From NCBI RefSeq assembly GCF_013201825.1, contig NZ_CP053836.1:1922001-1986000 (forward strand): a stretch of 64,000 nucleotides of DNA, written 5' to 3'. Positions 9,171 through 25,256 of this stretch are shown piece by piece. The position numbers and the translations under genes are program-made. Source of the DNA: Halarcobacter ebronensis. GTDB taxonomy: Bacteria; Campylobacterota; Campylobacteria; Campylobacterales; Arcobacteraceae. The notes under the pieces were generated by a model, which searched no databases, was not told the DNA's origin, and saw nothing but the letters and a program-made list of their open reading frames with translations. Within the stretch, counting starts at the first letter, position 1; every line of letters begins with the position of its first letter.

Positions 9171-9377
9171 ATCATTTATACCCTACTTTGAAAAGATATA
9201 TTATTCTACCAAAAAATAATAATATTATTAATTAAACGATTTTCTCCTGCCCTATTCTATATAATATTATATACTTTTATATTCATTCATACAGAGTACC
9301 ATTCCTTCACAAAAAATACCATAAAATAAGCTTTTATTAAACTTTCAATATATATACTTTCATATTAACTAATCTAA

Positions 9378-9390
9378 AAAAGTGTGTTAA
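9378..9390. repeat. Possible att core, left end of integrated element
   Basis: AAAAGTGTGTTAA here is repeated exactly and in the same orientation at 25473-25485, bracketing the integrase, relaxase and Rep genes. Related GTGTG runs continue at 9394-9421. The short AT-rich core and the lack of a tRNA target leave the boundary tentative. Confidence 0.4.
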
Positions 9391-9418
9391 AAAGTGTGTG
9401 ATTAAAAAGGTGTGTGTT

Positions 9419-10600
9419 GTGAAAAAATATATTAGAGTTAAACTTCCTAATTCAAATTGTACAGGTATTTCCCTTGAAATTGATTCAGATATTAATATAA
9501 AAGAAGTTACAACAGTTAAAGAAGCAAATAAATATATTAATGGTGTTTATAAACTTCATCTTAGAATTAAAAAGAATGGTATAGATAGTTCTAAAGTATT
9601 TTATTTTAATACTAATGATATTGGATTTAAAAAATCTATAGATCAAGTATCTTCAACAAGAGAAGAACTAAAAAAGAAACTTGCTACAAAAGGTACATTA
9701 AGAGAAAAGTATATTGAAAACTCAATGGAGTCTAATACATTCTTAGAACAAGCAAAACTATTTATAAAACAAAAGTCTATATCATTAAGACAGTCATCTA
9801 TTGATAACTATTCAACTAATCTTTTAACACACTCAAAAGAACTTCATAATAAGCTATATAATAGTATTACAATACATGATGTACAAAAGCAATTAAATAA
9901 GTTAATAGGGAAAAGAAAACCAGCAACAGTTAAGCTATTAGCATTAAACTTAAAAACCTTTTTAAAACCTTTAAATCTTGATTGGTCTACATTAGAAATA
10001 CCAAGTGTACATAATAAAGTAGATTATACCCTTCCTATTGAGGATACAAGAACAATTATTAAAGCAATGAGAAGTTATAGCTTAATAAAAGTTTCTGATA
10101 AAGAATATTATCAATTTCCTGAAGTTAGAAATATTTTTTTATTTTTATTAACTGGACGGAGAGTAAGTGAAGTTTTAAATCTAAAGTATTCAGATCTAAA
10201 TTTATCACAAAAGATTTTTAGAATACCAGCTAGCAAAGCAAAAGGGAAAAAAGAACTAGTTTTTGATTTAGATGATACATTACTAAATGCACTTGAAACA
10301 CAATCTAAAATTAATCATATTGAACTAAATGATAAATTAGATCTAAGAATATTTAACTACACAAAAGAAACACCTAGATGGCATTTTCAAAAGCTATTAA
10401 AAACATTAAATCTACCAAAACTTAGATTACATGATATTAGACATATGTTAGCAACTACACTACTTCAAAATGAAGTAGCAGTAGCTGATGTAAGTAGAAT
10501 GTTAGGACATAGTTCAATTATAGTTACAGAACAAAGATATGTAACTAAATCTAAAGAACAAGCTTCAAGAGCTTTGAAAGCTTTGGATAGTATTATTTAA
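9419..10600 (+). CDS. Tyrosine site-specific integrase
   Basis: This is a phage/ICE-type tyrosine recombinase. It has an N-terminal SAM-like core-binding domain (about 100-190) and a catalytic domain with the full set. Numbered from the upstream GTG at 9398, these are R255 (LLTGRRVSE), K280, H345-x-x-R348 (HDIRH), H371 (LGHSS) and Y381 (QRYVT). The frame is open from 9398, but the GTG at 9419 is preferred because AAGG lies 8 nt upstream of it, giving about 393 residues. It is the first gene inside the left putative att repeat, reads into the element and presumably mediates its integration and excision. Confidence 0.9.
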   Translation: MKKYIRVKLPNSNCTGISLEIDSDINIKEVTTVKEANKYINGVYKLHLRIKKNGIDSSKVFYFNTNDIGFKKSIDQVSSTREELKKKLATKGTLREKYIENSMESNTFLEQAKLFIKQKSISLRQSSIDNYSTNLLTHSKELHNKLYNSITIHDVQKQLNKLIGKRKPATVKLLALNLKTFLKPLNLDWSTLEIPSVHNKVDYTLPIEDTRTIIKAMRSYSLIKVSDKEYYQFPEVRNIFLFLLTGRRVSEVLNLKYSDLNLSQKIFRIPASKAKGKKELVFDLDDTLLNALETQSKINHIELNDKLDLRIFNYTKETPRWHFQKLLKTLNLPKLRLHDIRHMLATTLLQNEVAVADVSRMLGHSSIIVTEQRYVTKSKEQASRALKALDSII

Positions 10601-10610
10601 TAGTTTTAGT

Positions 10611-12614
10611 TTAATGAAGTTTTTTATAATTATTATATCCATCATAAATATTAGTTATGTCATTTTTTAAATAAAGTAAGCCAATAATATACTCTATTGC
10701 TTTTTTATCATTTTCATTTTCACTTAATAATTCTAAGGGTATAAATAAACTATTAAAAAGGATATCATCTATATTATAATTTTTATCAAGTTCTAAAATG
10801 ATATCTGTCAATTTTTGTAAATCTTTATTAGTTTTAGTAAACTCTTTCTCAACCTCAATAGGTACATTTTGTTTAAAAGTAAATCTAATATTAGTTAAAG
10901 CATGAATTATATTTCTAGGTAAATTATTCATAATACTATACCAATTATTAGGGGATAAAGAAATTTTAATAATTTTTTCATTGTTGTAAGTAAGAATTTT
11001 TCCATTTTCAAAGATAAGTTGTTTATTATCTAAGAGATTTTTTTCATGTCTTAGTAGCTGAAATTGTGAAGTTGCAAATGCTCTTATAAAATCTTGCAAA
11101 ATATGAATAGAAGAACCAGAATAAGATTCTTTTCTCAAACCTTTATTTTTATTTTCTATAAATATAATTTTATCATCTAATTTTATAACTAAATCACATT
11201 CTAACGGCTTATTATTTTTAGTAGTTTTATATTTATCTGAATAGATATCAAAATTTTTATTACTAAAGATATGTTTAACATAAGTATCTATATTATTACC
11301 AATCTTTGTAGTTACTTTTGAATCAAAATTTAATCTAATTTTTTCTACAAGTGCATTATAAAAATTCATTTTAAAGTATTTAAAACCAACTAAGTAATAA
11401 GTGTTCTTATGCTTTATTATTGGATTATGTATAAATAAGTTTTCTATATTAACTAAACTTGTAGGTATTAAGTAATTTTTATTTATTACTTTCGAATCAA
11501 CAGAAAAAAAACTAACTATTTTTTCCAACTCTTTGAAGTATTTTAAATCTATTTTTATTATATTTGCATTTTTAGATAACTTATCTGTATTTATTAAAAA
11601 AGTAGTGAGTTCATGCATTGAAAAACCAAATTTATTTTTAAATTCTTTATTTAATATTTCATTACCAATTAAATTATTTATATAGGCTATTAAGGTATCA
11701 GTATTTAAAGGATAACTCAACGAATATAAATTTAAATGTAAAACTTGTTTCTTTAGTTTTTCTTCAATATTTTGTTCATCAATATACATATACTCCCACA
11801 TATTAAAAGATCTTAATTGATATAAATTAATAAAATTTATAAATAATGTTACTATTGTTTTAAATATTTTATCATTTGATTTTTTTAGATTTGAAAGATG
11901 AATATTTTTTAATGCTAAATTTATAATATAGTTAAAAGGAATCCTTCGGTCATTCCTTTTTTGAATTAAAATAAAACTTAAAAATTCAAATATATCTATT
12001 TGTTGTAGTTTTTTTTCTATAAACTTAATAATTTTCATTTCTTGACATTTTTTAAAAACAATATTTCCATCTATACAGTCTATTTTAAATGAAGTATTAT
12101 TTTTAAAGTACTTTAATGACTCAACAAGAGTAGAGTTTTCTTTAATAAAGTTATGCTCTATTATTTTAAGAAAAGAATTTTTACTAATAAAATATAATAG
12201 ATAGAGTTTTTTAATTAATTTCTTCCAAAAAACTGTATTGGATAAGTCACAAATTTTATCTTCACTATAGATTCCATAATGTTGTAAAGCTTTAGAAATA
12301 GAATAATATATATTAAACCTTTCTTCTTTACAATCACCTAATAAATAATCAATATGTATCTGTTTTGATATATCAAATAATTTAGAAGTACTCATTGTAA
12401 AATTATTTTTATTCATTAATATAAACTCTTTTATATATTCTTTAAATAGTTCTTTCATATTATTTTGATTTGAATTATAAAAAATCTTAAAATGTTCAAA
12501 TATCTTTTTTTCAATCATTATTTTATCTTGTTCTAATTCTTCAAAAAAAGCTTTTTCTTCAAATAATGCATCATCAACTAAGTTAATAAATACATTTGTA
12601 TAATTTTTTAACAA
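10611..12614 (-). CDS. Large protein with C-terminal PD-(D/E)XK nuclease domain
   Basis: This 667-residue protein is not assignable to a named family. The N-terminal two thirds are alpha-helical with no clear motif. Residues about 430-530 form a restriction-endonuclease-like core: NIDTYVKHIF helix, then the acidic strand PLECDLVIK (E472, D474) and the strand IIFIENKNK with the E487-x-K489 signature. A helix follows (HILQDFIRAFATSQFQLLRH). It starts at TTG 12614 behind AAGGG and is 15 nt from the membrane-protein gene. Location beside an integrase suggests cargo, possibly defence or element maintenance; the function is inferred only. Confidence 0.7.
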   Translation of the reverse strand: MLKNYTNVFINLVDDALFEEKAFFEELEQDKIMIEKKIFEHFKIFYNSNQNNMKELFKEYIKEFILMNKNNFTMSTSKLFDISKQIHIDYLLGDCKEERFNIYYSISKALQHYGIYSEDKICDLSNTVFWKKLIKKLYLLYFISKNSFLKIIEHNFIKENSTLVESLKYFKNNTSFKIDCIDGNIVFKKCQEMKIIKFIEKKLQQIDIFEFLSFILIQKRNDRRIPFNYIINLALKNIHLSNLKKSNDKIFKTIVTLFINFINLYQLRSFNMWEYMYIDEQNIEEKLKKQVLHLNLYSLSYPLNTDTLIAYINNLIGNEILNKEFKNKFGFSMHELTTFLINTDKLSKNANIIKIDLKYFKELEKIVSFFSVDSKVINKNYLIPTSLVNIENLFIHNPIIKHKNTYYLVGFKYFKMNFYNALVEKIRLNFDSKVTTKIGNNIDTYVKHIFSNKNFDIYSDKYKTTKNNKPLECDLVIKLDDKIIFIENKNKGLRKESYSGSSIHILQDFIRAFATSQFQLLRHEKNLLDNKQLIFENGKILTYNNEKIIKISLSPNNWYSIMNNLPRNIIHALTNIRFTFKQNVPIEVEKEFTKTNKDLQKLTDIILELDKNYNIDDILFNSLFIPLELLSENENDKKAIEYIIGLLYLKNDITNIYDGYNNYKKLH

Positions 12615-12629
12615 GAATAACCCTTACTT

Positions 12630-14630
12630 CTAAATTTTATTTTTTTCTAAACCATAAGATTTCAATTGTTTTTCAGTTAAATTATTTCTCAGAGATACGC
12701 CTAATGGATAATTGTATTTTTCAAAAATAAATATCCAAGTTAATACTTCAGAATATTTTTTTATTAAAGTACTTGTATTATTTTCTAAAATATTTTGTGC
12801 ATTATTGAAGTAATTATCTCCTTTAATTGAGAAAGGTAACATTACAACAATAATAACTAATGAAAACACCATAATTTTTTTGATAATATTTACCTTGTTT
12901 TCATTCATTTTAAAAATAAGTACTAACATTAAACAAATGATCAAACTAAATAAACTTATTGCATTTAAAACACCAAATATTAAACTTAATGCTATAGCAA
13001 TAGGTGGTATATATAAAGCTTTAATTGACTTATTACCTTTATCTTTATATGAAGAAAATAATTGTTTTTTTGTTAATACAAATTCCTTTTTCAATCCTTC
13101 TTTTAGATTTGGCATATACACATCATCATAAAACCTTTCAGTTCGTTGATACGCAATTAATCTTAAAACTTTATTCTGTTCTTTTTTATTATACATTGAT
13201 AGAGTAGCCTTAAATTTCTCTCTAATTTGATTACTTAAAACAAAACTTTTAAAACTCAAGTTATGTTTTATGCCTGCTATACCCATTTTTTTATATAATT
13301 TATTAACATTTATATAGGTTTCTTTTGTAACATTTTTTATATAAGCATTTCTAAATTCTTTTTCTTTGTAATTAAAACTATTACTTACTTTAATCCCTTT
13401 TTTTCTCAAATTATTAATTATTTCGTTTTTTACTTCCTTGTTTAAAAGATAATCATTAAAAGTATCTATTCCTTCATAAGGAACCTTAGTTTTAGTTTTC
13501 CATTTATCATGATAGTTTTTTGATATAATTTCTGTAATTGCATATGTGTTTAAACAACCACTATAACTATCACCACCACCAGTAAAAGCTCTAAAAATTT
13601 CACCTAAGATTCCATCAGTTATTTCAACAAAAGGAGCTAATAAACCACCTGGTACTTTACACCATGAAGAAGGTTCAATTTTTCTTCCAAATTTTTGTAT
13701 CATATAGCTGTTATAGTCTTTAAGTGCTCTTTTCTTATAATATCCACCTCTATTATAATATTTAACAAAATCATTCCATTTTGATCTAAATGAACTATCA
13801 TTTTGTAATTTTTTAACATTTTTTTTAATATTATTATTTAAGTCTGATACCTCTTGTTGATATTTAGTAAAACTATTTTTTGATTCTCTCTTAAAATCTA
13901 AATATTTTTTATGTGATTGTTTTTTAGCCTTTAAAAATTCTTTATTTGCTTTTTTCTGTGCTTCAGTATATTTTACATATAACTCTTTTAATCCACTAGC
14001 AAACTGTATAAAGTTTTCATTTTGCTCTTTAAATTCATTTTCATATTTTTTTTGAGTATAAAAATTTAAAAATGAATCCATTCCAACTGTTGCAATTTTT
14101 TCTACAACTTTATTTTCATCAATATAGGATAATAAAAAAATATTATTGATAATTACTTTTTCATCAACTGAAAACTCTCGTTCATTATTGTCTTCAAATT
14201 TTAAGATTGAACTATGACCCAATACATTATTAGCAATTCCATTTTTTAATATATTTAAATAATATGCACTATACCTTTTATCTTTATTTTGTTCAACAAT
14301 ATAATCCATTAAAGAAGTTAGTGAAAAAAAGATAGATACATATATAACAGATGATACAATCATTGTAAGAATAAACTTAAACCATTCACCTTTATTGAAG
14401 ATTTTTTGTATTAACAAATAAGATAAAGGCATTAATAATAATGTTACACCAATTGATGTTATATTATGACCTAAAAGTTCAAGATTATTAAATATTTCCT
14501 CTGAAAAGTCTTTTATAACACCAGAGTCTAATACAATAGTATTATAAGAAGATTCTACTAATAAATATACAGTTTTAAATAAAATTATTATTATTAAAAA
14601 ATATATTGGTAATCCAAATATTCTTTTCAT
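12630..14630 (-). CDS. Large multi-helix membrane protein with central coiled coil
   Basis: This 666-residue protein is unrecognised. It has about four N-terminal transmembrane helices (7-27, 54-75, 85-106 and adjoining). A long hydrophilic middle follows with a Lys/Glu-rich coiled coil at about 215-275 (EAQKKANKEFLKAKKQ) and a Gly/Cys patch (FTGGGDSYSGCLNTYA), then three or four C-terminal helices (about 540-605). Its ATG overlaps the stop of the lipoprotein gene (TAATGA), and the nuclease gene follows after 15 nt. The three therefore form one operon. It could be a conjugation-channel part or the membrane arm of a cargo system. Confidence 0.6.
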   Translation of the reverse strand: MKRIFGLPIYFLIIIILFKTVYLLVESSYNTIVLDSGVIKDFSEEIFNNLELLGHNITSIGVTLLLMPLSYLLIQKIFNKGEWFKFILTMIVSSVIYVSIFFSLTSLMDYIVEQNKDKRYSAYYLNILKNGIANNVLGHSSILKFEDNNEREFSVDEKVIINNIFLLSYIDENKVVEKIATVGMDSFLNFYTQKKYENEFKEQNENFIQFASGLKELYVKYTEAQKKANKEFLKAKKQSHKKYLDFKRESKNSFTKYQQEVSDLNNNIKKNVKKLQNDSSFRSKWNDFVKYYNRGGYYKKRALKDYNSYMIQKFGRKIEPSSWCKVPGGLLAPFVEITDGILGEIFRAFTGGGDSYSGCLNTYAITEIISKNYHDKWKTKTKVPYEGIDTFNDYLLNKEVKNEIINNLRKKGIKVSNSFNYKEKEFRNAYIKNVTKETYINVNKLYKKMGIAGIKHNLSFKSFVLSNQIREKFKATLSMYNKKEQNKVLRLIAYQRTERFYDDVYMPNLKEGLKKEFVLTKKQLFSSYKDKGNKSIKALYIPPIAIALSLIFGVLNAISLFSLIICLMLVLIFKMNENKVNIIKKIMVFSLVIIVVMLPFSIKGDNYFNNAQNILENNTSTLIKKYSEVLTWIFIFEKYNYPLGVSLRNNLTEKQLKSYGLEKNKI

Positions 14631-14860
14631 TATAATGAACCTAAATCAATCTTTTTAAAAGATCCATTTTTTTTAATAAACTTTGATTTCTTTAAAATAA
14701 TTTGTTGTTCCTTAAGTATAAAAGGTTCACTAACTTCTAGTTCACTATTTTCTTCTACAAATAAGTCTTTATTTTTTTCTAAATTTTTATTATTAGATGA
14801 ACACCCTATGAATAAAAAAACACATAATCCTATAAATAACTTAATCAACTTACTAAACAT
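14630..14860 (-). CDS. Small lipoprotein
   Basis: This 76-residue protein has a hydrophobic signal (LIKLFIGLCVFLFIGC) ending in a lipobox cysteine (FIGC) followed by SSNN. The short mature part is Lys/Glu-rich and predicted to be mostly unstructured. It is the first gene of the lipoprotein, membrane protein and nuclease operon and overlaps the next gene by TAATGA. The length resembles entry-exclusion or VirB7-like lipoproteins of conjugative elements, but nothing specific can be said. Confidence 0.7.
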   Translation of the reverse strand: MFSKLIKLFIGLCVFLFIGCSSNNKNLEKNKDLFVEENSELEVSEPFILKEQQIILKKSKFIKKNGSFKKIDLGSL

Positions 14861-15478
14861 AATAACCTTAATAAATATATATAGATTTAATTATATAGAA
14901 ATTTTATTAAATTATAAATTATTTTTTGAATACTTTTTGTTATAATAAATTGTTAAAAAAAAGATAAAAATACAAGCTTAAAAAAATAGAAATTATAAAG
15001 TAAAAGAATTACTAAAAAAGCATAAAGATATTGCAGAGAATATGATATAAAAGTATAAATATTAAGCTTATATTACAATATCCTATGAATATATTAAGTT
15101 CCACAATCAGGAACTAAACTATATAACATAAAGCCTATTTTATAGCTGATTTATTAAATATATTTTTTATAGTACCGTATTAAATACCGTTAAGTTTCTA
15201 CTCTAAATTTATTTACAGACACATGAAGTTTTTTTAATACATCTGCTTTTGGATAAACCTTTTCAAATTCAATAAATATTAATAGTTTTATTTACAACTA
15301 TTACTTATTGTGATATAATATGTTGTAATTGGTAATTCACACCAACCGCACTCACCGAAAGGTATGGTAAAGTGTCTTAAACTTACAAGATTGGTTTCAG
15401 ATTTCTGAATTGATTCTTGCAATGTAGTATTAATGAGTGCAAATATAAAAATAGCAAAATGAATTAAAAGAGGAAAAA
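14861..15478. other. 618 bp AT-rich stretch without an intact gene
   Basis: This is a divergent intergenic region between the lipoprotein operon and the rightward genes. It carries a perfect 6 bp hairpin AGTTCC-ACAATCA-GGAACT (15097-15115) and a short gene remnant on the minus strand (15190-15285). Promoters for both directions must lie here, but none stands out in the A/T background. The 66-codon minus-strand frame at 15288-15488 has no ribosome site and overlaps the next gene, so it is not called. Confidence 0.5.
15190..15285 (-). pseudogene. Possible C-terminal gene remnant
   Basis: Without any start codon, this minus-strand frame reads about 32 codons ending FEKVYPKADVLKKLHVSVNK and then FRVET before a TAA at 15192-15190. 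The composition is protein-like and better than surrounding frames, but it is blocked by a stop upstream. It may be the tail of a lost gene. Chance is a real alternative at this length. Confidence 0.2.
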
Positions 15479-16144
15479 ATGAAAGCAATTAGCTTATTGA
15501 AAATCCAAAACGAGGCAAAAGAACTTCAAGTTAATCAAAAGATAACATATAATCAGGCGTTGCATAAAGTAGCTAAAAAAAATGGCTTTAAAGCTTATCA
15601 AGCATTACTGGAAAAAATTAAAAAAGATTATATTGATGATGAAGATAATCAAATCAAAGAATTTAAATCGAATGTATTTGAAAATCGAAAGCATATTGAA
15701 TCAAATTTTATAAAAATTGAAAAATTGTCTAAAAAGTATGGAGAAATTCGATTTAATGAAAAGTATGACGATGACGAAGAAACAAGAGAAGAACTGATTG
15801 AAGAAATAGAAGAAAAAGCTGCAGAGTTATCTAATTCTATTGCAAAAATGTTTTTTGGAAATGTGCTCAATAAACTGACAGATAACCAAAAATTATGTGT
15901 AGAAGGTGGTGCATATGCAGGTTATATTTCAAGTAATTATCAGACATTTCACAATGATATAGATGCTAATAATGCAGACTATTTTATTGAATTAGATATT
16001 GAAAATCAAAGAATTGAATTCTCTTATAGAGATTTTAATATTGATAAATATGAAGATATAGATAATGAAGGAAATAAATTTATAGGAGAAATTAAAGAAT
16101 GGAATGATTGGTGTCAAACTTCTGAGATTGAACTTCCTTTTTAA
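15479..16144 (+). CDS. Hypothetical acidic protein with N-terminal plasmid-type helical domain
   Basis: This 221-residue protein starts at an ATG behind AGAGGA. The first 50 residues (ISLLKIQNEAKELQVNQKIT.. YNQALHKVAKKNGFKAYQAL) resemble, from memory, a short helical domain found at the N-terminus of several plasmid and mobile-element proteins (LLK..AK.....ISYSQALE.VAK..GF..W..L). The rest is very acidic and ends in a small alpha/beta domain (about 130-221). The function is unknown. It is transcribed away from the nuclease operon and followed by a hairpin terminator. Confidence 0.6.
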   Translation: MKAISLLKIQNEAKELQVNQKITYNQALHKVAKKNGFKAYQALLEKIKKDYIDDEDNQIKEFKSNVFENRKHIESNFIKIEKLSKKYGEIRFNEKYDDDEETREELIEEIEEKAAELSNSIAKMFFGNVLNKLTDNQKLCVEGGAYAGYISSNYQTFHNDIDANNADYFIELDIENQRIEFSYRDFNIDKYEDIDNEGNKFIGEIKEWNDWCQTSEIELPF

Positions 16145-16158
16145 TATAATACATAAAT

Positions 16159-16190
16159 AAAGAGATAAAGTTTTAATGCATTATCTCTTT
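16159..16190 (+). terminator. Hairpin terminator after the 15479 gene
   Basis: AAAGAGATAA (16159-16168) pairs perfectly with TTATCTCTTT (16181-16190) around a 12 nt loop, extended by further A/T pairs and followed by TATTTG. It lies 15 nt after the stop. Confidence 0.7.
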
Positions 16191-16356
16191 TATTTGAATT
16201 ACTTTTATTTTTTGCACTTTTATAATTATTATAATCACTCATAAAAGACCTTTGTTATTTTAATATATAACATTATATACTACTATATATTCCTGAAAGA
16301 TTATTTTACTTGCTAAGTGATAAAATAATTGATAAAGAAATAAAAAAGGAGCATAT

Positions 16357-16674
16357 ATGTATGAAGATGATTTAACAACAGGAACAGACTATCAATATAA
16401 TTCTAATCTTGAAAGTATGGTAGTAGCTAAGAAAAAGTCACAAATACAAGAAAAAGTAAACTTAGATTTAGTAAGCACTTTGTTAGATGAGAATAGATCA
16501 TATAGTGATTTATCACAAGAAGATTTAATAAGATTAAAAAAAGAGCATGAAGATTTATTTGATAGCTTACCACAAAAAGATTTACCAATTGAGAAACAAT
16601 CGGATTTAGAACGGGCAATAAGAGAAGATTATCAGGAAATTTGTGAAGTACTAAAAAATAGAAGATTAATATAA
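16357..16674 (+). CDS. Small hypothetical acidic protein
   Basis: This 105-residue protein has ATG behind AAAAAGGAG. It is mostly helical and acidic (ENRSYSDLSQEDLIRLKKEH, then DLERAIREDYQEICEVLKNR), with no membrane segment or known motif. It is an element-encoded gene followed by an imperfect hairpin at 16680-16713. The function is unknown. Confidence 0.55.
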   Translation: MYEDDLTTGTDYQYNSNLESMVVAKKKSQIQEKVNLDLVSTLLDENRSYSDLSQEDLIRLKKEHEDLFDSLPQKDLPIEKQSDLERAIREDYQEICEVLKNRRLI

Positions 16675-16679
16675 AAATC

Positions 16680-16713
16680 TTAGAAAGTAGTATAACTTTA
16701 TACACTTTTCTAA
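16680..16713 (+). terminator. Imperfect hairpin terminator
   Basis: TTAGAAAGT (16680-16688) pairs with ACTTTTCTAA (16704-16713) with an inner TATAA/TTATA stem, followed by ATTTTA. It lies just after the stop of the 105-residue gene. Confidence 0.5.
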
Positions 16714-16753
16714 ATTTTATGAATGAAACGTATAGATAAAACTAGGAAGTAAT

Positions 16754-18178
16754 TTGAATACCAAAAAAGAAATAGAACATATTGTTAATTACCACATGGT
16801 AAATTCTCCACTATCACAATGGTTTAAAAGTACCCCTGTGATTAATATTCAAGACAATAGTCCTGGCACTATTGAAATAGTATTTTCAGATATTAAAATA
16901 ATTAATAATTCAAAAGGTAATACTGCAAGATTATTAAAACAAGAAATTAATTCATTATATTCCATATTAGAAAAAAGTAATAGAGGAGCATTTATATCCT
17001 TTATATTAAAAAATTCTCATATTCAAATTTTAAATGAATCTATTGACTTCCCTTTTTATCTTGTTTTTGTAGAATCAGAAATAAATATTTATATAGACAT
17101 AGCTAGTCATATAGAAACAATAAAATTAAATAAAGGTAACTTTAGCAATTGTGTTTTTACAAATTTAAGTATTCTTTTAAGTAATAATGAAGTAGAGAAT
17201 ATTGAAAATATTGAAATTGATTTAATTGGTAATACTATTGAAATGTTACAGTTACAACATATTGAACTTAAGAACAATAAATCAAATAAATTTAATATTG
17301 AAAATTGCAATATAAATCGTATAACATTTTGGAAGGTAATATCAGATATTGATATATCATTTAATAAGATAAACACATCTTTAGATAAAAAACAAGAACA
17401 ATTAAGATTTATGGAATGCACATTTAATGGAAGGTTCTTTTTAATTAATTCTTTTTTTGATACTAAGCTTGATTTAGATGGAGTTAGCTTTAATAATGAT
17501 ACTTCTTTTAAAAACCTTTACATTAAAACAACAGATTTAGATAAAGCTTTTTTTAGTAAAGAGATTAACGTAAAAATTTCTGATTTACATTTTTCTGATC
17601 TAAAAAACATTTCAAGAAGTACTTTTAGAGAGATTAAACAAATCCTTGAAAATAATGGTAATAAAATTGATGCTAACAGGTTTCATAGCTATGAACTAAT
17701 AGCAAAGAGAGAAGAATTAAAAAAAGAAGGATTTAATTTACATAATACTTTAGATCATATTGTTTATTTCATGAATAATAATATATCTAATCATGGACTA
17801 AATTGGATGTTACCATTGTTTTGGATGTTTTATATAGGTTTTTTTTATAGTGGTTTTTTTTATAGTTCACAATTAGACATTGATGAAATAGCAGTTTTAT
17901 CTTTTACCTTAGTAAGTTCAATATTAGCATTATCATTTAAAACTTATATAGATGAGAGTAAAAAACTATATATTTACATCTTAGCATTAATATTAAGCAC
18001 CATTTTTTATTTTTATATGCATAATGGAATTGAATATCTTGTTAGATTTTTAAATGTTATTGACTTCTCAAAGGATATAGACAATATAGAATTTACTGAT
18101 AAAAGTATTTCTAAAATAATTATGATATACCTTATATATCATTTCACAACTACATTAAGAAAAGATACAAGGAAATAA
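16754..18178 (+). CDS. Beta-helix (pentapeptide-like) protein with C-terminal membrane helices
   Basis: This 474-residue protein starts at TTG 16754 behind AGGAAG. Residues about 95-280 show a repeating pattern of N/F/I positions (NCVFTNLSILLSNN, NCNINRITFWKVISDIDISF, FMECTFNGRFFLINSFFDTK) typical of right-handed beta-helix or pentapeptide-type repeats. Next comes a conserved-looking helical linker (ANRFHSYELIAKREELKKEG) and then four hydrophobic helices (about 355-375, 385-400, 410-425, 455-470). This architecture is widespread on mobile elements and in defence neighbourhoods. Its biochemical role is unknown to me. Confidence 0.65.
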   Translation: MNTKKEIEHIVNYHMVNSPLSQWFKSTPVINIQDNSPGTIEIVFSDIKIINNSKGNTARLLKQEINSLYSILEKSNRGAFISFILKNSHIQILNESIDFPFYLVFVESEINIYIDIASHIETIKLNKGNFSNCVFTNLSILLSNNEVENIENIEIDLIGNTIEMLQLQHIELKNNKSNKFNIENCNINRITFWKVISDIDISFNKINTSLDKKQEQLRFMECTFNGRFFLINSFFDTKLDLDGVSFNNDTSFKNLYIKTTDLDKAFFSKEINVKISDLHFSDLKNISRSTFREIKQILENNGNKIDANRFHSYELIAKREELKKEGFNLHNTLDHIVYFMNNNISNHGLNWMLPLFWMFYIGFFYSGFFYSSQLDIDEIAVLSFTLVSSILALSFKTYIDESKKLYIYILALILSTIFYFYMHNGIEYLVRFLNVIDFSKDIDNIEFTDKSISKIIMIYLIYHFTTTLRKDTRK

Positions 18179-18198
18179 ATAAAAATATTTTATCTTGC

Positions 18199-18336
18199 TA
18201 ATATATTAGATATTATCATTTGTCCACCTAATATATTAAAAAACACATATTTTTAAAGAATGTCCTATTAATATATTATATTATCTAGCTAATATATTAA
18301 GAAAAGCACCATTATTAAGTACTCATTAATATATTA
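18199..18336. repeat. Iteron-like array of TAATATATTA palindromes
   Basis: Five exact copies of TAATATATTA occur at 18199, 18229, 18269, 18290 and 18327. Each is preceded by a related half (TTRTCYWGC-like: TTATCTTGC, TTTGTCCACC, AATGTCCTAT, TTATCTAGC), and the fifth copy is in the opposite orientation (read in reverse it gives TTTTGTCCTGC). They fill the region between two convergent genes. Iterons of this kind serve replication initiation, partition or copy control. Confidence 0.7.
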
Positions 18337-18357
18337 GCAGGACAAAATCAATATTAC

Positions 18358-18591
18358 TTACCTATTAACTTTCTTTTTGAGATATGATGTATCAGGAATA
18401 GGCTCTAATTTTAGTTTATTATCACTATTAAAAGTCTCTACATTTGACTCTTTTTCTTCACTTCCATTACCTATATTAACAATAGGACAATTTCTTATAC
18501 TACATTTACTTACAAAAGCTTTTATTCTTTCCATTCTACTTTTATGTTCCTCATTACTAATAAAATCTTCTTGACTATTTTCTAAACTCAT
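18358..18591 (-). CDS. Small hypothetical protein downstream of the relaxase
   Basis: This 77-residue protein starts at an ATG 12 nt after the relaxase stop, so it is in the relaxase operon. It has an acidic N-terminus, a CSIRNCPIVNIG segment with two cysteines and a basic end (YLKKKVNR). No family is recognised. A mobilisation accessory role is suggested only by position. Confidence 0.55.
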   Translation of the reverse strand: MSLENSQEDFISNEEHKSRMERIKAFVSKCSIRNCPIVNIGNGSEEKESNVETFNSDNKLKLEPIPDTSYLKKKVNR

Positions 18592-18603
18592 TTTTTATTC
18601 CTT

Positions 18604-20061
18604 TTATTTTTTTCTAAATTTTCTTTTAGTATTTGAACTTTCTTCTAAAGGTTCTGATTTTGATTGGTAGTTATTTGTATGTTGCTTTATTCTATTCATT
18701 ATATTTTGATATGAATTTTCATCCATATCATCAATAGTCGCATGCAAGCTTGTATTTTCTTTTCTAAGCTTATCATTTTCAATTTCTAAAGCTTGTATAT
18801 ATTCTTTTAGATCTCTATTCTCTGAATGAAGATTTTTATTAGATTCTTTTGATTTTTCAAGTTCATTATATAAGCTTGTTAAAGTAAACTTAGCTTGTTT
18901 TAGTTCTTTACTTACATCGGCATTTAAATTTAAATACATTGCACTTTTATTTTTAAGTTCTTCAATATCAGCTTCTAAAGTTTTAATTACTTGCTTGTAT
19001 ATTTCAACTTCATCTTTTACATCTTTAAGAGATTCTTTTAAATCAATATTTTCATTAATAATTTCATCAATTCTAATTTTTAACTTTTCATATTCAGTTT
19101 TAAAATATGAAGCATTACTAACAATATTTTCAATATCTTCTATACTTAAATTATCATCTTCTAATTGTATTTTTAAGCTTTTATGTAAAGCTTCAAGTTT
19201 TGCATGTTCTTCCCTTTTTGCACCTAACTTTTGAAGTTCTTTTCTTTGTTGTTTAATAATCTCTTTTAAATCATTATCAGAAGCTTTCTTTTTTAGTTTT
19301 TGTTCTCTAACTTTTGCATGTTCCTCTTTAATCTGCCAATGATTTTTTCTTTTAGTTTTGCTCCAAACTGTTCCTCTTTCCATTTTTAAAAACTCTGCTA
19401 CTTTTGTTTGAAGTAAAGACATTTTAGTTCTATTTAACCTTGCACTCTTACAAGTATCTAAATCATATAAGGAAAATATAGTATGTACATGATAATTCAT
19501 TTTTAATTGTAGTTTTGACATATCAGCTTTTATTTTAAATTCTTTATCTAAATACCAATCTTTTGTATCTTCATTATAAAAGATATCTTTACTTGGTTTA
19601 TAATCAATAATTTCATCTGTAACATCTAAATCATTGTGATACCATTTTAAATTAATACTGTCATAGATTAATTCATTTTCAGGATATGGACTATCTAAAA
19701 ACACTCCTTCGTCTCTATGAATAGAGACATCAAGTAATTCAAATCCTGTAAACTCTTTTTTAAGCTCTTTAAATAGGTTTTCTATATCTTTTACGTTATG
19801 TTCTTTTTTTAAATTTATCACTGCTTCTAAGAATAGATTATCTACTTGTTTTTTCTGCATAGATTGATTATGTTTTTGTTTGTATGAGTCTATTGCTAAT
19901 TTTTTAAATCTGACATAGTCCATATATCTTTTATTTTCATTTACTTTATTTGAATCTAAATGTTTTAAAAGATATGTGATTTTTGAAGTTCTTGAATTGT
20001 GTTCTTCGGCTCTTTGTAAGTCTGCTTTTTGAAAATTAAAACTGCTTTTAGAAACTGCCAT
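18604..20061 (-). CDS. MobV-type relaxase (plasmid mobilisation protein)
   Basis: This 485-residue protein has an N-terminal relaxase-like domain with the MobV/Pre acidic-histidine motif (H115-R-D117-E118-G) and the metal-binding H191-V-H193 (NYHVHTIF). A conserved basic helical region (LNRTKMSLLQTKVAEFLKME RGTVWSKTKRKNHWQIKEEH) follows, then a long coiled coil (about 240-455). MobV enzymes nick oriT and pilot the strand during conjugative mobilisation. A nested palindrome immediately upstream (20100-20216) is a good oriT candidate. The start at ATG 20061 follows GGGGAG. The spacing between the two motifs is longer than in classical MobM. Confidence 0.8.
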   Translation of the reverse strand: MAVSKSSFNFQKADLQRAEEHNSRTSKITYLLKHLDSNKVNENKRYMDYVRFKKLAIDSYKQKHNQSMQKKQVDNLFLEAVINLKKEHNVKDIENLFKELKKEFTGFELLDVSIHRDEGVFLDSPYPENELIYDSINLKWYHNDLDVTDEIIDYKPSKDIFYNEDTKDWYLDKEFKIKADMSKLQLKMNYHVHTIFSLYDLDTCKSARLNRTKMSLLQTKVAEFLKMERGTVWSKTKRKNHWQIKEEHAKVREQKLKKKASDNDLKEIIKQQRKELQKLGAKREEHAKLEALHKSLKIQLEDDNLSIEDIENIVSNASYFKTEYEKLKIRIDEIINENIDLKESLKDVKDEVEIYKQVIKTLEADIEELKNKSAMYLNLNADVSKELKQAKFTLTSLYNELEKSKESNKNLHSENRDLKEYIQALEIENDKLRKENTSLHATIDDMDENSYQNIMNRIKQHTNNYQSKSEPLEESSNTKRKFRKK

Positions 20062-20099
20062 TGCTCCCCTACCCCTTTTTATTCTGAAACTTTTCTCAT

Positions 20100-20216
20100 A
20101 CCCCTTGCGGGTTTTAAAAGAAAAGCAAATTTATACCTCACATAGTTGGGGTGTTAATTTGCAAATTAACACCCTAAAGGATGAAATTTGAAAATCATTG
20201 CTAACCCACAAGGGGT
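20100..20216. other. Candidate origin of transfer (nested inverted repeats)
   Basis: A perfect 26 bp palindrome with half-site GGGTGTTAATTTG (20149-20161) and its complement (20162-20174) is centred between two outer inverted arms. These are ACCCCTTGCGGGTT (20100-20113) and AACCCACAAGGGGT (20203-20216), matching at 13 of 14 positions. It lies immediately upstream of the MobV relaxase gene, where MobV oriT sites are normally found. Confidence 0.6.
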
Positions 20217-20234
20217 TTATGATTTTTCTTTATT

Positions 20235-20474
20235 CTACCCCTGAATATTTTTAATGAATTTTTTCTCAAACTCTTTCTGTTTTTTTTCTAAAATTTCAAA
20301 TATCTCTTTATTAGATTTATTCTCTTTTTTTAATCTATCTAAAGTGTCTTTCTCTACCATTCTCATCTTCCCTTTACCATCTGTAATAGTTACAAATACA
20401 AACCCATTTTCTTTTGCATTTAATACACCTGATAAACTTGCTAAAATAACTACTATTAAAAAACTTTTTTTCAT
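20235..20474 (-). CDS. Small secreted protein
   Basis: This 79-residue protein has a signal peptide (MKKSFLIVVILASLSGVLNA) and a short charged mature part (VEKDTLDRLKKENKSNKEIF EILEKKQKEFEKKF) predicted as a helix. It lies 2 nt downstream of the 64-residue gene and in the same run as the conjugation-type membrane proteins, so a periplasmic transfer accessory is plausible. No family is recognised. Confidence 0.6.
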   Translation of the reverse strand: MKKSFLIVVILASLSGVLNAKENGFVFVTITDGKGKMRMVEKDTLDRLKKENKSNKEIFEILEKKQKEFEKKFIKNIQG

Positions 20475-20476
20475 TT

Positions 20477-20671
20477 TTATTCTCCTGAATCATATATTTT
20501 TTCAATGTCTGATAACGACATAATTTTTAATAAATCTGCAAAACTTGGATATCCATTTATATACCAACCCGAAAACTCTTCACCTTTTACTTTAATTACT
20601 TTTCTTGTAACTACTGGAACTAGTCCATACATTTTCTCAATTGCCATTAATCTTTTATTGTTTACTCTCAT
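20477..20671 (-). CDS. Small hypothetical protein
   Basis: This 64-residue protein starts at an ATG behind GGAGTAGGG. It is basic at the start (MRVNNKRLMAIEKMYG) and ends in a helical SFADLLKIMSLSDIEKIYDS segment, with no membrane span. It sits between the large membrane gene and the small secreted gene with short gaps, in the same presumed operon. Confidence 0.5.
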   Translation of the reverse strand: MRVNNKRLMAIEKMYGLVPVVTRKVIKVKGEEFSGWYINGYPSFADLLKIMSLSDIEKIYDSGE

Positions 20672-20697
20672 TGCCCTACTCCTTTTAGATTAAATTA

Positions 20698-23304
20698 TTA
20701 AATTGGATTTTGCCATTTAGCAGTTTTTGATTCTACATTTCCTACAAGTTGATTTTCAGAAATTGAATCTCTGATTCCAAAAATATCAAGTATCATATTT
20801 GCACCATTGAACACTAAATAAAACACAACAAATACACCTATTATCGAATTTCCTATTAATAAAAATCCTTTTATTGTTGTAAGTCCCAAAGTATCGAAGA
20901 AGCTACCAATAGAAAAACTAGAAGCTTCATTGAGTGCATACATTGGCTCAAATTGTAGATTTATTAACATCACGTTTATTGTTTCAAAAAACTCTTTTGC
21001 AAATAATGCCATCACGATAGATATCACAATTAGCAAGGGTTTAAAAGCTAGTGTTAAACCTACTTTCATAAATGTTTTAAGGTGTTCTAGTTGGTTAGTT
21101 GAGAATGCAAAAGCTATCATAAATGGAACTGCTAAGTAATAAATTTCAATCATAAAATAGTAGAAAAATATAACCATAAAAGAAGCTGTAGAAATAGCTA
21201 TAATTGGTAAATATGAAATTAAATATTTAATAATTAATATAGCTAGAAATATAGATAGTATTTTTATTAAAGCGTCAAGTATTCCCTCTGCCATATCAGC
21301 TACTATTCCCAAAACTAAACTTTTAAAATTAGAAGCCATAGTGTATAAAGAGTTTTGTGTTACAGGCTTTTGATTAGTCATTTTTGAATGAACAGAATTA
21401 CTATTATTTCCCTTGTTTATAATGTTTGCATTTTTTGATTGAACATTATTTGAAACGTCATTTACTAAGTTTATAAGCTTACTTGGAAATAGTTTTAAAG
21501 GTGACAATAAAGTCTCTGTAAATCTTTGTATAGAGTCAAATCCTGGCACTAAAACATAAGGTATATTTGAAAAAGACCAGTTTATAGATGAATCTATCCA
21601 ACCTTCACCTTCTGCTATAGCACCAATTTCATAGCCACTAGATTTCCTATAGTCTTTTATAGTTTGTTCTCTTTGTTCTTCTTCAAAGCTACCTTTTAAG
21701 CCTATATTATCTATAAAAAAGCTTGTTGTTGCCAACATTGGTAAGCTTGTAAAACCTAATTCAGAATTGTTTCTATATTGCATATTTGCAATAATCTCAA
21801 CTTGCTTTTTAATTACATCATTCTCTTTTGCATTTTGATATGATTTAATTAAATAGTTTAATGATTTTAATTCTGTTTTATTCTCTAAAAATTTTCTTTC
21901 AAACTTATAGCAAGAACTAACACTATAAAGTCCATTCATTTTTATAAAACTTTCATTTTTTAAGAAGCTTGTATTATAAAAATTAGTATATGTATCACCA
22001 CCTATTTGAGAAGAATACCTTTTTAGATTCTCGCTTGGTGGGTAAGTTTGATTTAATCCAACAGTTACACCTATATACTGTTTTAAAGCTTCTGTATTAT
22101 AAATATCAGAACAAGTGTTTAATAAGCTTGTTAATTTAGTTTGTTCATAGTTTATTTTTTCTTTTTCTAAGCTTATTTCATTTATTGTAGAAACAGGAGC
22201 TAAGCCTACGTCTCTTAATTTATATTTCAAATATGCATTGGTGGCACTTGAACTTGCCAAATCTGCTAAATATGCACCTTTATAGAGAACAGGTCTTATT
22301 AATTGATGAAAGTTAGTTTGAGATATCTTATTTTCTTTATCATCAACTTTAATATTACTTGTTGAAAAGAAAAATATAAACATAGTTGCAACACCTAATA
22401 TTATTCTTTCTGCTATATCATCAAAATCACTAACATTACTTACATATTTTGTTAGTTTTGAAAGAACTGACATTCCAATAGTAATTGGTATTATGGTAAA
22501 TAAAATGAAAGTTTTACCTATTAACATTACATCATTGTATTCGTTTAAAAAGTTAATTATAAAGATTATTGAATTAGTTAAAAAGCCTTTTACTGTACTT
22601 ACTAAGTCTTTATTTTCTATGGTATTTGTATTAGGTTGAGATTCCTTTATATCTATTCCTAAACTTTCTTGGAATGAAGTTCTAGCAGAATTTACTATTG
22701 ATTTTAATTCATCAAGTAATGATTTATTTTCATTCACTACAATTGAATTTGGGTAAAGTGTATAACCACTATTTAAAGTAACTTGGTTATATTTTATAGT
22801 ACTTGGTACATCAATAATTTCTTCATCTACAGTTAAACCAGCGATCATATATTTTGAAAGATTTACGAATTCTTGATTAGTACCTACGTTACTATAGTTT
22901 TTATATTTTTCTTCAATCTTTTTTAGATCTTCAAAATTTTGTAAACTCATTGATTCATTTGGTTTAGATTCTAAAGGTTGAATTTTTATATTATTATATT
23001 CACTTTTACAAGATTGATTTACATTTGAAACTCTTGCAAGAATATTATCAGGCATTTTTTTGTCATATACATAGCAAGAAGTTTCACCTCTTTTGATATC
23101 TATGTTAGCAATTCTTCCAAAATATCCTTCTTTTAATGTAGGACACTCGTAATAACAACTATTTCTATTTGGATATGATGATATATAGCTTTCTTTTTGA
23201 TTTAAAGTGTCTTCAAAGCTATTTATAATCTCACTTGGAGTTTGACTAGCAAAAAGATAGTTTAAGGCTAATATGCATATTAAAATTAGTTTATTTAACT
23301 TCAT
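20698..23304 (-). CDS. Large conjugation-type polytopic membrane protein (DotA/TraY- or TrbL/VirB6-like)
   Basis: This is an 868-residue protein from ATG 23304, chosen because GAGGA lies 6 nt upstream; the frame also opens at TTG 23310. It has a signal peptide (ILICILALNYLFA) and a long periplasmic region with cysteines. Two helices lie at about 245-320, followed by a second large soluble part. A cluster of six or more C-terminal helices (about 660-850) includes EIYYLAVPFMIAFAFSTNQL and TLAFKPLLIVISIVMALFAK. The general plan matches inner-membrane channel proteins of type IV secretion, but the family is uncertain. Confidence 0.6.
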   Translation of the reverse strand: MKLNKLILICILALNYLFASQTPSEIINSFEDTLNQKESYISSYPNRNSCYYECPTLKEGYFGRIANIDIKRGETSCYVYDKKMPDNILARVSNVNQSCKSEYNNIKIQPLESKPNESMSLQNFEDLKKIEEKYKNYSNVGTNQEFVNLSKYMIAGLTVDEEIIDVPSTIKYNQVTLNSGYTLYPNSIVVNENKSLLDELKSIVNSARTSFQESLGIDIKESQPNTNTIENKDLVSTVKGFLTNSIIFIINFLNEYNDVMLIGKTFILFTIIPITIGMSVLSKLTKYVSNVSDFDDIAERIILGVATMFIFFFSTSNIKVDDKENKISQTNFHQLIRPVLYKGAYLADLASSSATNAYLKYKLRDVGLAPVSTINEISLEKEKINYEQTKLTSLLNTCSDIYNTEALKQYIGVTVGLNQTYPPSENLKRYSSQIGGDTYTNFYNTSFLKNESFIKMNGLYSVSSCYKFERKFLENKTELKSLNYLIKSYQNAKENDVIKKQVEIIANMQYRNNSELGFTSLPMLATTSFFIDNIGLKGSFEEEQREQTIKDYRKSSGYEIGAIAEGEGWIDSSINWSFSNIPYVLVPGFDSIQRFTETLLSPLKLFPSKLINLVNDVSNNVQSKNANIINKGNNSNSVHSKMTNQKPVTQNSLYTMASNFKSLVLGIVADMAEGILDALIKILSIFLAILIIKYLISYLPIIAISTASFMVIFFYYFMIEIYYLAVPFMIAFAFSTNQLEHLKTFMKVGLTLAFKPLLIVISIVMALFAKEFFETINVMLINLQFEPMYALNEASSFSIGSFFDTLGLTTIKGFLLIGNSIIGVFVVFYLVFNGANMILDIFGIRDSISENQLVGNVESKTAKWQNPI

Positions 23305-23950
23305 TTTCAATCCTCATAAAATATCCACCTACGCTAAAATTAAATCCAAAATTGAATCCTCTTTTAACTCTAAATAATCCCTTGCCTTGCCAACCAAAAG
23401 AATCTACTCTTGGAAGTAGAGGTATAAGTGGTCTATTGTGTTGTTTTGTTAGATTTACTTGATTTACTTTTTTGATATCTTTTAAGTAATAGTAATTTTC
23501 ATATTTCTTTTTAACTATATCTCTTATTAAAATAGCTACTATGATTATTTGAGAAGCATACATTACATAGCTTTCTACATACACACCAATTTGTATATAA
23601 TTGTAAAATACTAAAAAACCACCTACTAGCAATAGAACTAGAAACTTGATAAAATATTTTGGAAATTTGATAAGTACAAATCCACCAATTGCAACTGATA
23701 TTAAAGAAGCTCCAAATATTTTAAAATCTAAAAGCTCTTTTGGATATATAAATAATCCAAAAATTATGAACACAAAAACACCGTACTTCATTAGAAGAAC
23801 TTTCCATAGATCAACTTTTTTAAATTTTGATTCTGCAACTTCACTAACTGCTTTCTTATTTTTAAAGTCTAAATTTATATCAGTCGTATATCCCAACCAA
23901 AGTAAATAAGGATATTTATTTACTCTAATTTTATATTTTTTAAAATCCAT
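23291..23950 (-). CDS. Membrane protein, probable transfer accessory
   Basis: This protein of about 219 residues starts at ATG 23950, with GGAT 8 nt upstream; a TTG lies at 23962. It has four or five hydrophobic helices (about 50-165) and a basic, Gly/Phe-rich C-terminal tail (FRVKRGFNFGFNFSVGGYFM). The end overlaps the start of the large conjugation-type gene, so the two are coupled. No family is recognised. Confidence 0.6.
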   Translation of the reverse strand: MDFKKYKIRVNKYPYLLWLGYTTDINLDFKNKKAVSEVAESKFKKVDLWKVLLMKYGVFVFIIFGLFIYPKELLDFKIFGASLISVAIGGFVLIKFPKYFIKFLVLLLVGGFLVFYNYIQIGVYVESYVMYASQIIIVAILIRDIVKKKYENYYYLKDIKKVNQVNLTKQHNRPLIPLLPRVDSFGWQGKGLFRVKRGFNFGFNFSVGGYFMRIENEVK

Positions 23951-23969
23951 ATTATAATCCAAATATTAG

Positions 23970-24166
23970 GCAAGCGACATAGCGAAACTTTTAGATAGTT
24001 AAAATTTCACTGCAAACGCTTGCTACCGCCTTTCGCTTACGCTCAAGTTGGTCTATGATTAAAGAAAATTAATTTTATGAATAAATAATTAGCTTACCCA
24101 TAAAATTAAAATTTCTAACCCTTTTCCACGATTTTTGGTACTCCAAAAATGTGGGTACTGCGTACC
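23970..24166. other. Hairpin-rich gene-free stretch in the element
   Basis: Several inverted repeats are stacked here: GCAAGCG (23970-23976) with CGCTTGC (24017-24023), AGCGAAA (23981-23987) with TTTCGCT (24031-24037), ATTTTTGG-TACT-CCAAAAAT (24131-24150) and GGTAC-TGC-GTACC (24154-24166). The first two are locally GC-rich against the AT background. It lies just downstream of the Rep-like gene. It could be a replication origin, a second transfer site or a terminator cluster. Confidence 0.45.
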
Positions 24167-24195
24167 TTGTAGTTATTTAGCACGATTAAAGTTGC

Positions 24196-24774
24196 TTAAG
24201 CAGTATTATGAGCAGTTGATTTCGTTGTTCTTGGCTTTTGTGTATAAGCTCTTGATTTTTTCTTTTTTTCTTTCTCAACTTCATGCATGCAGATTAATGC
24301 ATCCCAGTTTGAATAATCTTCAGTTTCTATTTCTTCTTTTAACTCTTGCTCTATCTCTATTGGACTTTTTTGGACACTCGTTGGACAATGTCCAATTTTG
24401 TTTTTATTTTCTTTTCTTTCATTTCTTTTATACTGTGCCCATTTACTTTCCGAACCTACCATATTTTGAGTTTCTATCATAAATAAAGTACCATCATCCC
24501 ATCTTTCCATAAGTTGAAGTTCAATAAATAAGCTTACTGCAACTTTAACTGTGTCAATTGATGTATTTGTAATTGTTGCCAACATGTCAGGGGAATATGG
24601 AATTGTATTTCTAAAAAAAAGCTGACCTTCACTCTCTACGCTTTTTAGCAATAGTTTCATATAGAAGATAATGTAGTCTTTTCCATTTTGTTGATTTTCA
24701 ATTATTTTGATTTCTTCTCTATCAAAAAAATCATTCTTTAGTTTCAACCAAAAGAACTTTTTATTGTTACTCAT
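24196..24774 (-). CDS. Replication protein, phage replisome organizer N-terminal domain
   Basis: In this 192-residue protein, residues 5-120 (FFWLKLKNDFFDREEIKIIE, then DYIIFYMKLLLKSVESEG, then YSPDMLATITNTSIDTVKVA) match the winged-helix N-terminal domain of phage replisome organizers and plasmid Rep proteins. These bind origin repeats. The tail is charged and low-complexity, ending KSTAHNTA. ATG 24774 follows AAAGG. A Rep gene on an integrated element suggests that the excised circle can replicate. Confidence 0.75.
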   Translation of the reverse strand: MSNNKKFFWLKLKNDFFDREEIKIIENQQNGKDYIIFYMKLLLKSVESEGQLFFRNTIPYSPDMLATITNTSIDTVKVAVSLFIELQLMERWDDGTLFMIETQNMVGSESKWAQYKRNERKENKNKIGHCPTSVQKSPIEIEQELKEEIETEDYSNWDALICMHEVEKEKKKKSRAYTQKPRTTKSTAHNTA

Positions 24775-24871
24775 TATTTACCTTTAATAAATTACATTAA
24801 AAGTTAAATAATCATATGCAGTAATTATGTTATAATGCAGATGATTAAAACCTGTAGTTGGATTTAATTAC

Positions 24872-24911
24872 CCACTCTTTTAAAAAAATTGGCGTTGGAT
24901 TAAAAGAGTGG
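24872..24911. other. Perfect 12 bp inverted repeat with 16 nt loop
   Basis: CCACTCTTTTAA (24872-24883) pairs perfectly with TTAAAAGAGTGG (24900-24911). It lies between the Rep gene and the HTH gene. There is no T-tract after either arm, so a simple terminator is unlikely; a Rep-binding site, nick site or RNA structure is possible. Confidence 0.5.
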
Positions 24912-24914
24912 AAT

Positions 24915-25181
24915 TTATTTAACTAGTTTGTCTAGTTCTGATTTTTCTATTCTAATAGCTGTCCTAATTTTTTTAAATTTTATTTCCCTTCTCTCAATCA
25001 TCTTCCTAACACTTATTTCAGATATATTTAAATATTTAGATGCTTCTTTAACAGTCATTAACTCTAATGTTGTATTATTACTTGAAGTTTTATTATTTTG
25101 ATTTTTTATTAAATATTCAGCAAGGTTTGAGATTTTTTCTTCTAAAATTTCTAACCTCTTTTCATCAATTGCTATCATCAT
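24915..25181 (-). CDS. Excisionase-like HTH DNA-binding protein
   Basis: This 88-residue protein starts at ATG 25181, where AAAGG lies upstream; a longer frame to 25256 has no ribosome site. The C-terminal half is a MerR/excisionase-type winged helix (MTVKEASKYLNISEISVRKM then IERREIKFKKIRTAIRIEKS), preceded by a short coiled coil. Such proteins act as recombination directionality factors or as small regulators of Rep and mobilisation genes. Its position at the right end of the element fits an excisionase. Confidence 0.75.
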   Translation of the reverse strand: MMIAIDEKRLEILEEKISNLAEYLIKNQNNKTSSNNTTLELMTVKEASKYLNISEISVRKMIERREIKFKKIRTAIRIEKSELDKLVK

Positions 25182-25256
25182 AATTTTTCCTTTAATTTTG
25201 TTAGTATATATGCATATATATATGAAATTATAACCAAGAAACAAAACAAAAAGCAA

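What the first reader, a model, noticed from the sequence alone, without database searches (positions are those of the whole stretch)
10611..14860. Lipoprotein, large membrane protein and PD-(D/E)XK nuclease operon next to the integrase
Three tightly coupled genes combine an outer or inner membrane lipoprotein, a 666-residue membrane protein with coiled coil and a 667-residue protein with an E-D...E-x-K nuclease core. None belongs to a family I know. Nuclease plus membrane partner as cargo beside an integrase is the layout of many defence systems, so this is a candidate undescribed one.
Basis: inference. Interest (0 to 1): 0.65.

Follow-up and report, generated by a model that had tools for sequence, protein, structure and literature searches.

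The report
Orphan GAPS1-like nuclease on mobile element
A DNA-cutting enzyme carried by a mobile DNA element turns out to be a distant, enlarged relative of the bacterial anti-virus protein GAPS1 that travels alone among other anti-virus genes, while the lipoprotein and membrane protein next to it form a separate pair that merely happens to be its neighbour here.

Summary
The three minus-strand genes exist as described: a 76-aa lipoprotein (14633-14860), a 666-aa membrane protein (12630-14630) and a 667-aa protein with a PD-(D/E)XK core (10611-12614). They are not one conserved system. Outside the window the nuclease occurs at 17 further loci (Campylobacterota, Gamma- and Alphaproteobacteria), never with the membrane protein. 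The membrane protein occurs at 4-6 loci, usually with a lipoprotein gene upstream, never with the nuclease. So two modules sit side by side. The nuclease motifs (G439, Y462, E472, D474, E487, K489, Q519) are conserved family-wide, and the domain folds like McrC, LmuA and Can2. Profile comparison links it to the antiphage protein GapS1 (hhalign 95.9%, E 6e-9, 322 columns, about 185 of them upstream of the nuclease domain). Shedu, TnsA and NERD controls score nothing. Eight of the 17 other loci lie within about 8 kb of known defence genes (Gabija, CBASS, Bil, Hma, Dsr1, AbiE, TIR-caspase). The genes are cargo of a 16.3-kb element with an empty site in a sister genome; in another sister the same slot holds a Lamassu gene. 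Best reading: a stand-alone, long-form GAPS1-like antiphage nuclease, hence a new variant of a known kind. Defence was not tested; the membrane pair's function is open.

The parts
10611..12614 (-). 667-aa stand-alone nuclease: helical N-terminal ~430 residues, C-terminal PD-(D/E)XK domain (about 433-645; G439, Y462, E472, D474, E487, K489, Q519, H523); remote homologue of GapS1
12630..14630 (-). 666-aa membrane protein: TM about 7-25, 56-76, 86-104, ~440-residue soluble helical part, TM 554-572 and 582-600; relatives in Campylobacterota and marine Gammaproteobacteria, there with a C-terminal PEGA domain
14633..14860 (-). 76-aa lipoprotein (lipobox FIGC), stop overlapping the start of the membrane gene; partner of the membrane protein
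   Evidence: lipoprotein genes upstream of the homologues in L050, L040, L041
9398..10600 (+). tyrosine recombinase (Phage_integrase, E 2e-21) of the element
9254..25553 (.). integrated 16.3-kb mobile element: 8-bp ATTCTATA at 9254-9261 and 25546-25553 (the latter in the 3' end of a DUF2400 gene); flanks contiguous in sister genome G011 (L094)
18604..23962 (-). backbone genes shared at about 90% DNA identity with an element in G004 that lacks all three focal genes: 485-aa coiled-coil protein, 870-aa multi-TM (TrbL/VirB6-like by inference) protein, 223-aa protein
24196..24774 (-). phage replisome organiser N-terminal domain protein (Phage_rep_org_N, E 1e-27)

Best explanation
Two independent cargo modules lie side by side in an integrative element. 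The nuclease is a single-gene defence protein: a long-form, remote homologue of GAPS1, built from an about 430-residue helical N-terminal part and a C-terminal PD-(D/E)XK nuclease. Shown: the fold and motif of the nuclease, the homology to GapS1 over about 320 residues, the stand-alone occurrence, the mobile setting and the frequent defence-gene neighbours. Inferred: that it is held inactive until the N-terminal part senses a feature of invading phage or plasmid DNA, and then cleaves nucleic acid, either destroying the invader or killing the cell. The lipoprotein and membrane protein are a separate envelope module (by topology the large soluble domain is probably periplasmic) and are not needed for the nuclease.
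For: Catalytic residues invariant among 15 family members from three proteobacterial/campylobacterotal lineages. The C-terminal domain matches McrC Z 8.3, Lamassu LmuA 8.0 and Can2 7.2. GapS1 profile: 95.9%, E 5.9e-9, score 79; column-shuffled controls score at most 18.5; Shedu, TnsA and NERD score 16 or less. Nuclease loci carry GajA/GajB (E 1e-235/1e-194), CBASS E1-E2/JAB, BilD, HmaC and Dsr1, AbiEii, TIR plus caspase. No nuclease locus other than the window encodes the membrane protein, and no membrane-protein locus encodes the nuclease. Empty site in G011; Lamassu LmuB at the same slot in G014. No relatives in 50,697 phage records or by peptide patterns in viral contigs.
Against: No activity data. 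The defence-neighbour count is not corrected for background, because mobile elements gather defence genes anyway. Several copies stand alone with no defence gene near (L017, L043, L070). No member comes near the GapS1 cut-off (best 15 bits against 320), and the full-length model is only moderately confident (pLDDT 66).
Confidence: 0.62

Rival explanations
1. A three-gene defence system: the lipoprotein and membrane protein sense phage adsorption or DNA entry at the envelope and switch on the cytoplasmic nuclease.
For: Tight same-strand packing, 15-nt gap, and all three in one cargo slot.
Against: Co-occurrence 0 of 17 other nuclease loci and 0 of the membrane-protein loci; each module is complete and conserved without the other; the nuclease has its own ribosome-binding site.
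Confidence: 0.08
2. The nuclease serves competition between mobile elements (cutting rival plasmids or conjugating DNA) rather than phage defence.
For: 12 of 15 plasmid records that carry relatives are conjugative; it sits in a conjugative-type element related to that of G004.
Against: Chromosomal copies next to Gabija or CBASS, or between housekeeping genes, with no plasmid. The two roles are not exclusive.
Confidence: 0.2
3. It is a housekeeping or repair nuclease of the element (replication, excision or transfer).
For: The PD-(D/E)XK fold is also used in repair and in element excision control proteins of the XisH kind.
Against: The backbone at 90% identity in G004 lacks it; it occurs on unrelated replicons and as a solitary chromosomal gene; four of 18 copies are broken (L010, L018, L049, L071), which suits a dispensable accessory gene.
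Confidence: 0.06

Closest known systems
GAPS1 / GapS1 (NCBIfam NF047931 antiphage_GapS1, 455 positions)
   Same: Collinear profile alignment over 322 columns including about 185 residues before the nuclease domain; same order of G, E/C-D, E-x-K and Q elements; single protein.
   Different: About 220 further residues at the N-terminus; sequence identity near background (9%); 15 bits or less against a cut-off of 320; partly different catalytic-region wording (ECDLVI...FIENK).
Shedu SduA and other PD-(D/E)XK single-gene defences (PDC-S01)
   Same: PD-(D/E)XK effector domain; weak fold match SduA Z 5.3; PDC-S01 touches the nuclease part of one member at 3e-5.
   Different: hhalign to Shedu-like proteins score 14, probability 0.1%; PDC-S01 is described as an ATPase fused to PD-(D/E)XK (PMC12988326), which is not seen here.
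McrC, Lamassu LmuA, Can2/Card1
   Same: Best fold neighbours of residues 433-645 (Z 8.3, 8.0, 7.2).
   Different: No ATPase, SMC or CARF partner domain; N-terminal part has no match above Z 4.8.
PEGA-domain membrane proteins of Pseudoalteromonas/Neptuniibacter (for the membrane pair)
   Same: 20-33% identity over the length, same TM layout, lipoprotein gene upstream.
   Different: Window protein lacks the C-terminal PEGA domain; the Pseudoalteromonas lipoprotein is a 470-aa phosphodiesterase-like protein; function unknown in all.

Membership tests
PD-(D/E)XK nuclease superfamily | D...(D/E)xK motif on a core alpha-beta-beta-beta-alpha-beta fold | tested here: met
   D474, E487, K489 invariant; modelled H433-451, E456-462, E471-478, E482-488, H502-530, E547-554; McrC Z 8.3
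GapS1 (NF047931) | Score over the curated cut-off (320 bits) | tested here: not met
   Window protein no match; best relative 15.1 bits
GapS1 (NF047931) | Homology beyond the nuclease domain | tested here: met
   hhalign 95.9%, E 5.9e-9, 322 columns; N-terminal halves alone 36%, E 4e-4, in register; shuffles and other PD-(D/E)XK families far lower
GapS1 (NF047931) | Single-gene antiphage activity | not testable with these tools
   Needs plating assays; GAPS1 of K. pneumoniae is reported to protect against many phages (PMC12908700)
Shedu (SduA) | SduA_C (DUF4263) domain | tested here: not met
   No Pfam match; hhalign to SduA_C proteins score 14
Three-gene nuclease/membrane defence system | Conserved co-occurrence of nuclease and membrane partner | tested here: not met
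   None outside the window in 338 kb around nuclease loci and 103 kb around membrane loci, nor genome-wide (the G232 hit is a GGDEF/EAL protein)
Conjugative transfer operon | Nuclease or membrane pair conserved in tra/trb gene order | tested here: not met
   Related G004 backbone lacks them; nuclease neighbours vary from locus to locus
Known PADLOC 2.0.0 defence family | Full-length match to a model | tested here: not met
   No match for the window proteins; only short C-terminal hits for distant relatives

The most novel reading that the evidence does not exclude
The family is an undescribed branch of single-gene defence: a GAPS1-type nuclease whose extra helical N-terminal half has no detected structural relative and would be a new sensor of phage or plasmid DNA, spread across Campylobacterota and Proteobacteria.
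Probability: 0.4. Interest if true: 0.55.

Novelty: new variant of a known kind. Interest (0 to 1): 0.4.

Why it matters
It would extend GAPS1, whose mode of action is little described, to a family with a longer architecture in new phyla, with several natural loci beside Gabija, CBASS, Bil and Hma in which to test it alone. It also corrects a natural misreading: three tightly packed cargo genes need not be one system.

Tried and rejected
Three-gene system: rejected on co-occurrence. Weak hits in Pfam and NCBIfam (DpnII, NERD, DUF234, YraN) and PADLOC PDC-M29B/PDC-S01: all short and confined to the nuclease core where coordinates were shown. Apparent membrane-protein homologue in G232: a GGDEF/EAL protein matched by its hydrophobic N-terminus, rejected. 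Viral contigs with the nuclease (single protein and alignment) and with the membrane protein: nothing; phage records with the nuclease: nothing. Fold search of the N-terminal 440 residues: nothing above Z 4.8, so no fold assigned, which is not proof of a new fold. Viral structure library: nothing significant. PDB by sequence: nothing. First hhalign with only three GapS1-like sequences was inconclusive (16.9%) and became strong only with more sequences. Gammaproteobacterial genome sample gave only the two known full-length loci plus short nuclease-core hits. Promoter/terminator scan uninformative. Original GAPS1 paper not in the held library.

Full report
Observation. The window (Campylobacterota by its nearest relatives) holds three minus-strand genes between the tyrosine integrase (9398-10600) and position 14860: a 76-aa lipoprotein, a 666-aa membrane protein and a 667-aa nuclease. 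The lipoprotein stop overlaps the membrane start (TAATG). The nuclease starts at a TTG 15 nt after the membrane stop behind an AAGTAAGGG, and homologues begin at the same residue. None of the nuclease or membrane proteins matches a Pfam or PADLOC family, nor the nuclease an NCBIfam family.

Setting. The left flank aligns to sister genomes up to 9261 and the right flank from about 25491. In G011 the flanks join, with an 8-bp ATTCTATA at 9254-9261 and 25546-25553, the right copy inside the 3' end of a DUF2400 gene. The insert is thus a 16.3-kb element with an integrase, a Phage_rep_org_N protein and a membrane protein distantly like those on Campylobacter and Helicobacter plasmids. In G014 the same slot carries other cargo including a Lamassu LmuB (E 2e-111), so the site takes defence cargo. 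An element in G004 shares window 18199-24226 at 90% DNA identity but lacks the three genes. They lie in the most AT-rich stretch (about 19-23% GC against 24-29% in most of the backbone).

Two modules, not one. Nuclease relatives were found in Campylobacterota (6 further genomes among 150 searched; more by profile), in two gammaproteobacterial assemblies and on 15 plasmid records of Alpha- and Gammaproteobacteria. Counting near-identical ones once, that is 17 loci beyond the window. A profile of the membrane protein finds nothing in any of them, nor in the whole genomes or plasmids that hold them, apart from one false hit. Conversely the membrane protein's relatives in G090, G062, Neptuniibacter, Pseudoalteromonas and, remotely, Vibrio have no nuclease near. 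Three of those have a lipoprotein gene directly upstream: 364 aa in G090, 78 aa in Neptuniibacter, and a 470-aa phosphodiesterase-like lipoprotein in Pseudoalteromonas. So the lipoprotein and membrane protein are a pair, and the nuclease is separate.

The nuclease. Alignment of up to 15 family members down to 15-17% identity leaves G439, Y462, D474, E487, K489, G500 and Q519 invariant, and E472, F485 and K491 nearly so: the ECD / FxExK / Q pattern of PD-(D/E)XK enzymes. AlphaFold2 with five sequences gave a moderate model (pLDDT 66, pTM 0.43) whose C-terminal domain has the expected order of elements and aligns best with McrC (Z 8.3, 133 residues, 3.5 A), LmuA (8.0) and Can2 (7.2). These Z values are middling and support only the fold. 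The N-terminal 440 residues are mostly helical and matched nothing above Z 4.8.

Link to GAPS1. One distant member touched NF047931 (antiphage_GapS1) at E 0.008. I fetched one GapS1 over the curated cut-off (429.6 bits) and several below it, aligned them and compared profiles. Result: 95.9%, E 5.9e-9, score 79 over 322 columns covering window-protein residues 224-565. The regions before the nuclease domain align to each other in register on their own (36%, E 4e-4), and the nuclease domains likewise (87%, E 4e-6). Thirty column-shuffled controls reach at most 18.5. Shedu-type proteins, a TnsA-like protein and a NERD protein, all of the same superfamily, score 16 or less; the membrane-protein profile against GapS1 scores 20. 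With the single bona fide GapS1 alone the probability is 67%, so the link leans on the wider GapS1-like set. I read it as real but remote homology: a longer GAPS1-like family, not GapS1 itself, since no member reaches the family cut-off.

Neighbourhoods. Known defence genes within the fetched stretches: Gabija GajA/GajB in G284 (L071), CBASS E1-E2/JAB in G055 (L013), BilD on the Xanthomonas plasmid (L045), HmaC on the Bradyrhizobium plasmid (L046), Dsr1 beside an FRG gene on the Rhizobium jaguaris plasmid (L102), AbiEii in G088 and on the Alteromonas plasmid, and TIR plus caspase on the Shewanella plasmid: 8 of 17. FRG (L011) and a Tn7-like transposase set by my own reading (L012) are softer. 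This is not corrected for background. Four copies are broken: by a composite transposon (L010; two transposases 453 of 454 identical), split in two frames (L018), IS-interrupted (L049), and decayed (L071), as is common for accessory genes.

Mechanism. Shown: nuclease fold and motif, GapS1 homology, stand-alone and mobile occurrence. Inferred: antiphage or anti-plasmid activity, activation through the N-terminal part, and nucleic-acid cleavage as the effect. That GAPS1 protects against phages rests on PMC12908700 (K. pneumoniae GAPS1) and the NCBIfam name. The membrane protein's hydropathy (TMs near 7-25, 56-76, 86-104, 554-572, 582-600) with charge bias puts the ~440-residue soluble part most likely in the periplasm with the lipoprotein, another reason not to join it to a DNA nuclease without evidence.

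Verdict. The nuclease is a credible single-gene defence candidate, a new long variant related to a known kind.

Noticed in passing
window 12630-14860; L050 7557-10477; L040 4591-7164; L041 3669-7407: A lipoprotein plus multi-TM coiled-coil membrane protein pair recurs in Campylobacterota and marine Gammaproteobacteria, in the latter with a PEGA domain; function unknown.
   Followed up: partly
L089 7280-10858 (G014, same integration slot): The same chromosomal slot in a sister genome carries a Lamassu LmuB-like gene and further cargo, so it is a cargo hotspot.
   Followed up: partly
own genome C1:721832-722689 (L105): The window's own genome also has a short GapS1-like protein (49.5 bits, below the family cut-off).
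   Followed up: partly
own genome C1:196.7-202 kb (L054 6682-11868): A second, diverged copy (29-39% identity) of the 223/870/485-aa backbone operon of this element, probably another mobile element.
   Followed up: no
L010 9567-19336 (G088): A composite transposon with two nearly identical transposases around outer-membrane efflux-type genes interrupts the nuclease gene.
   Followed up: partly
L009 11988-12740 (Sulfurospirillum): A NERD-domain plus zinc-ribbon protein gene overlaps the nuclease gene by 4 nt; found only in that lineage.
   Followed up: no
window 16754-18178: 474-aa membrane protein with weak pentapeptide-repeat similarity, further cargo of the element.
   Followed up: no
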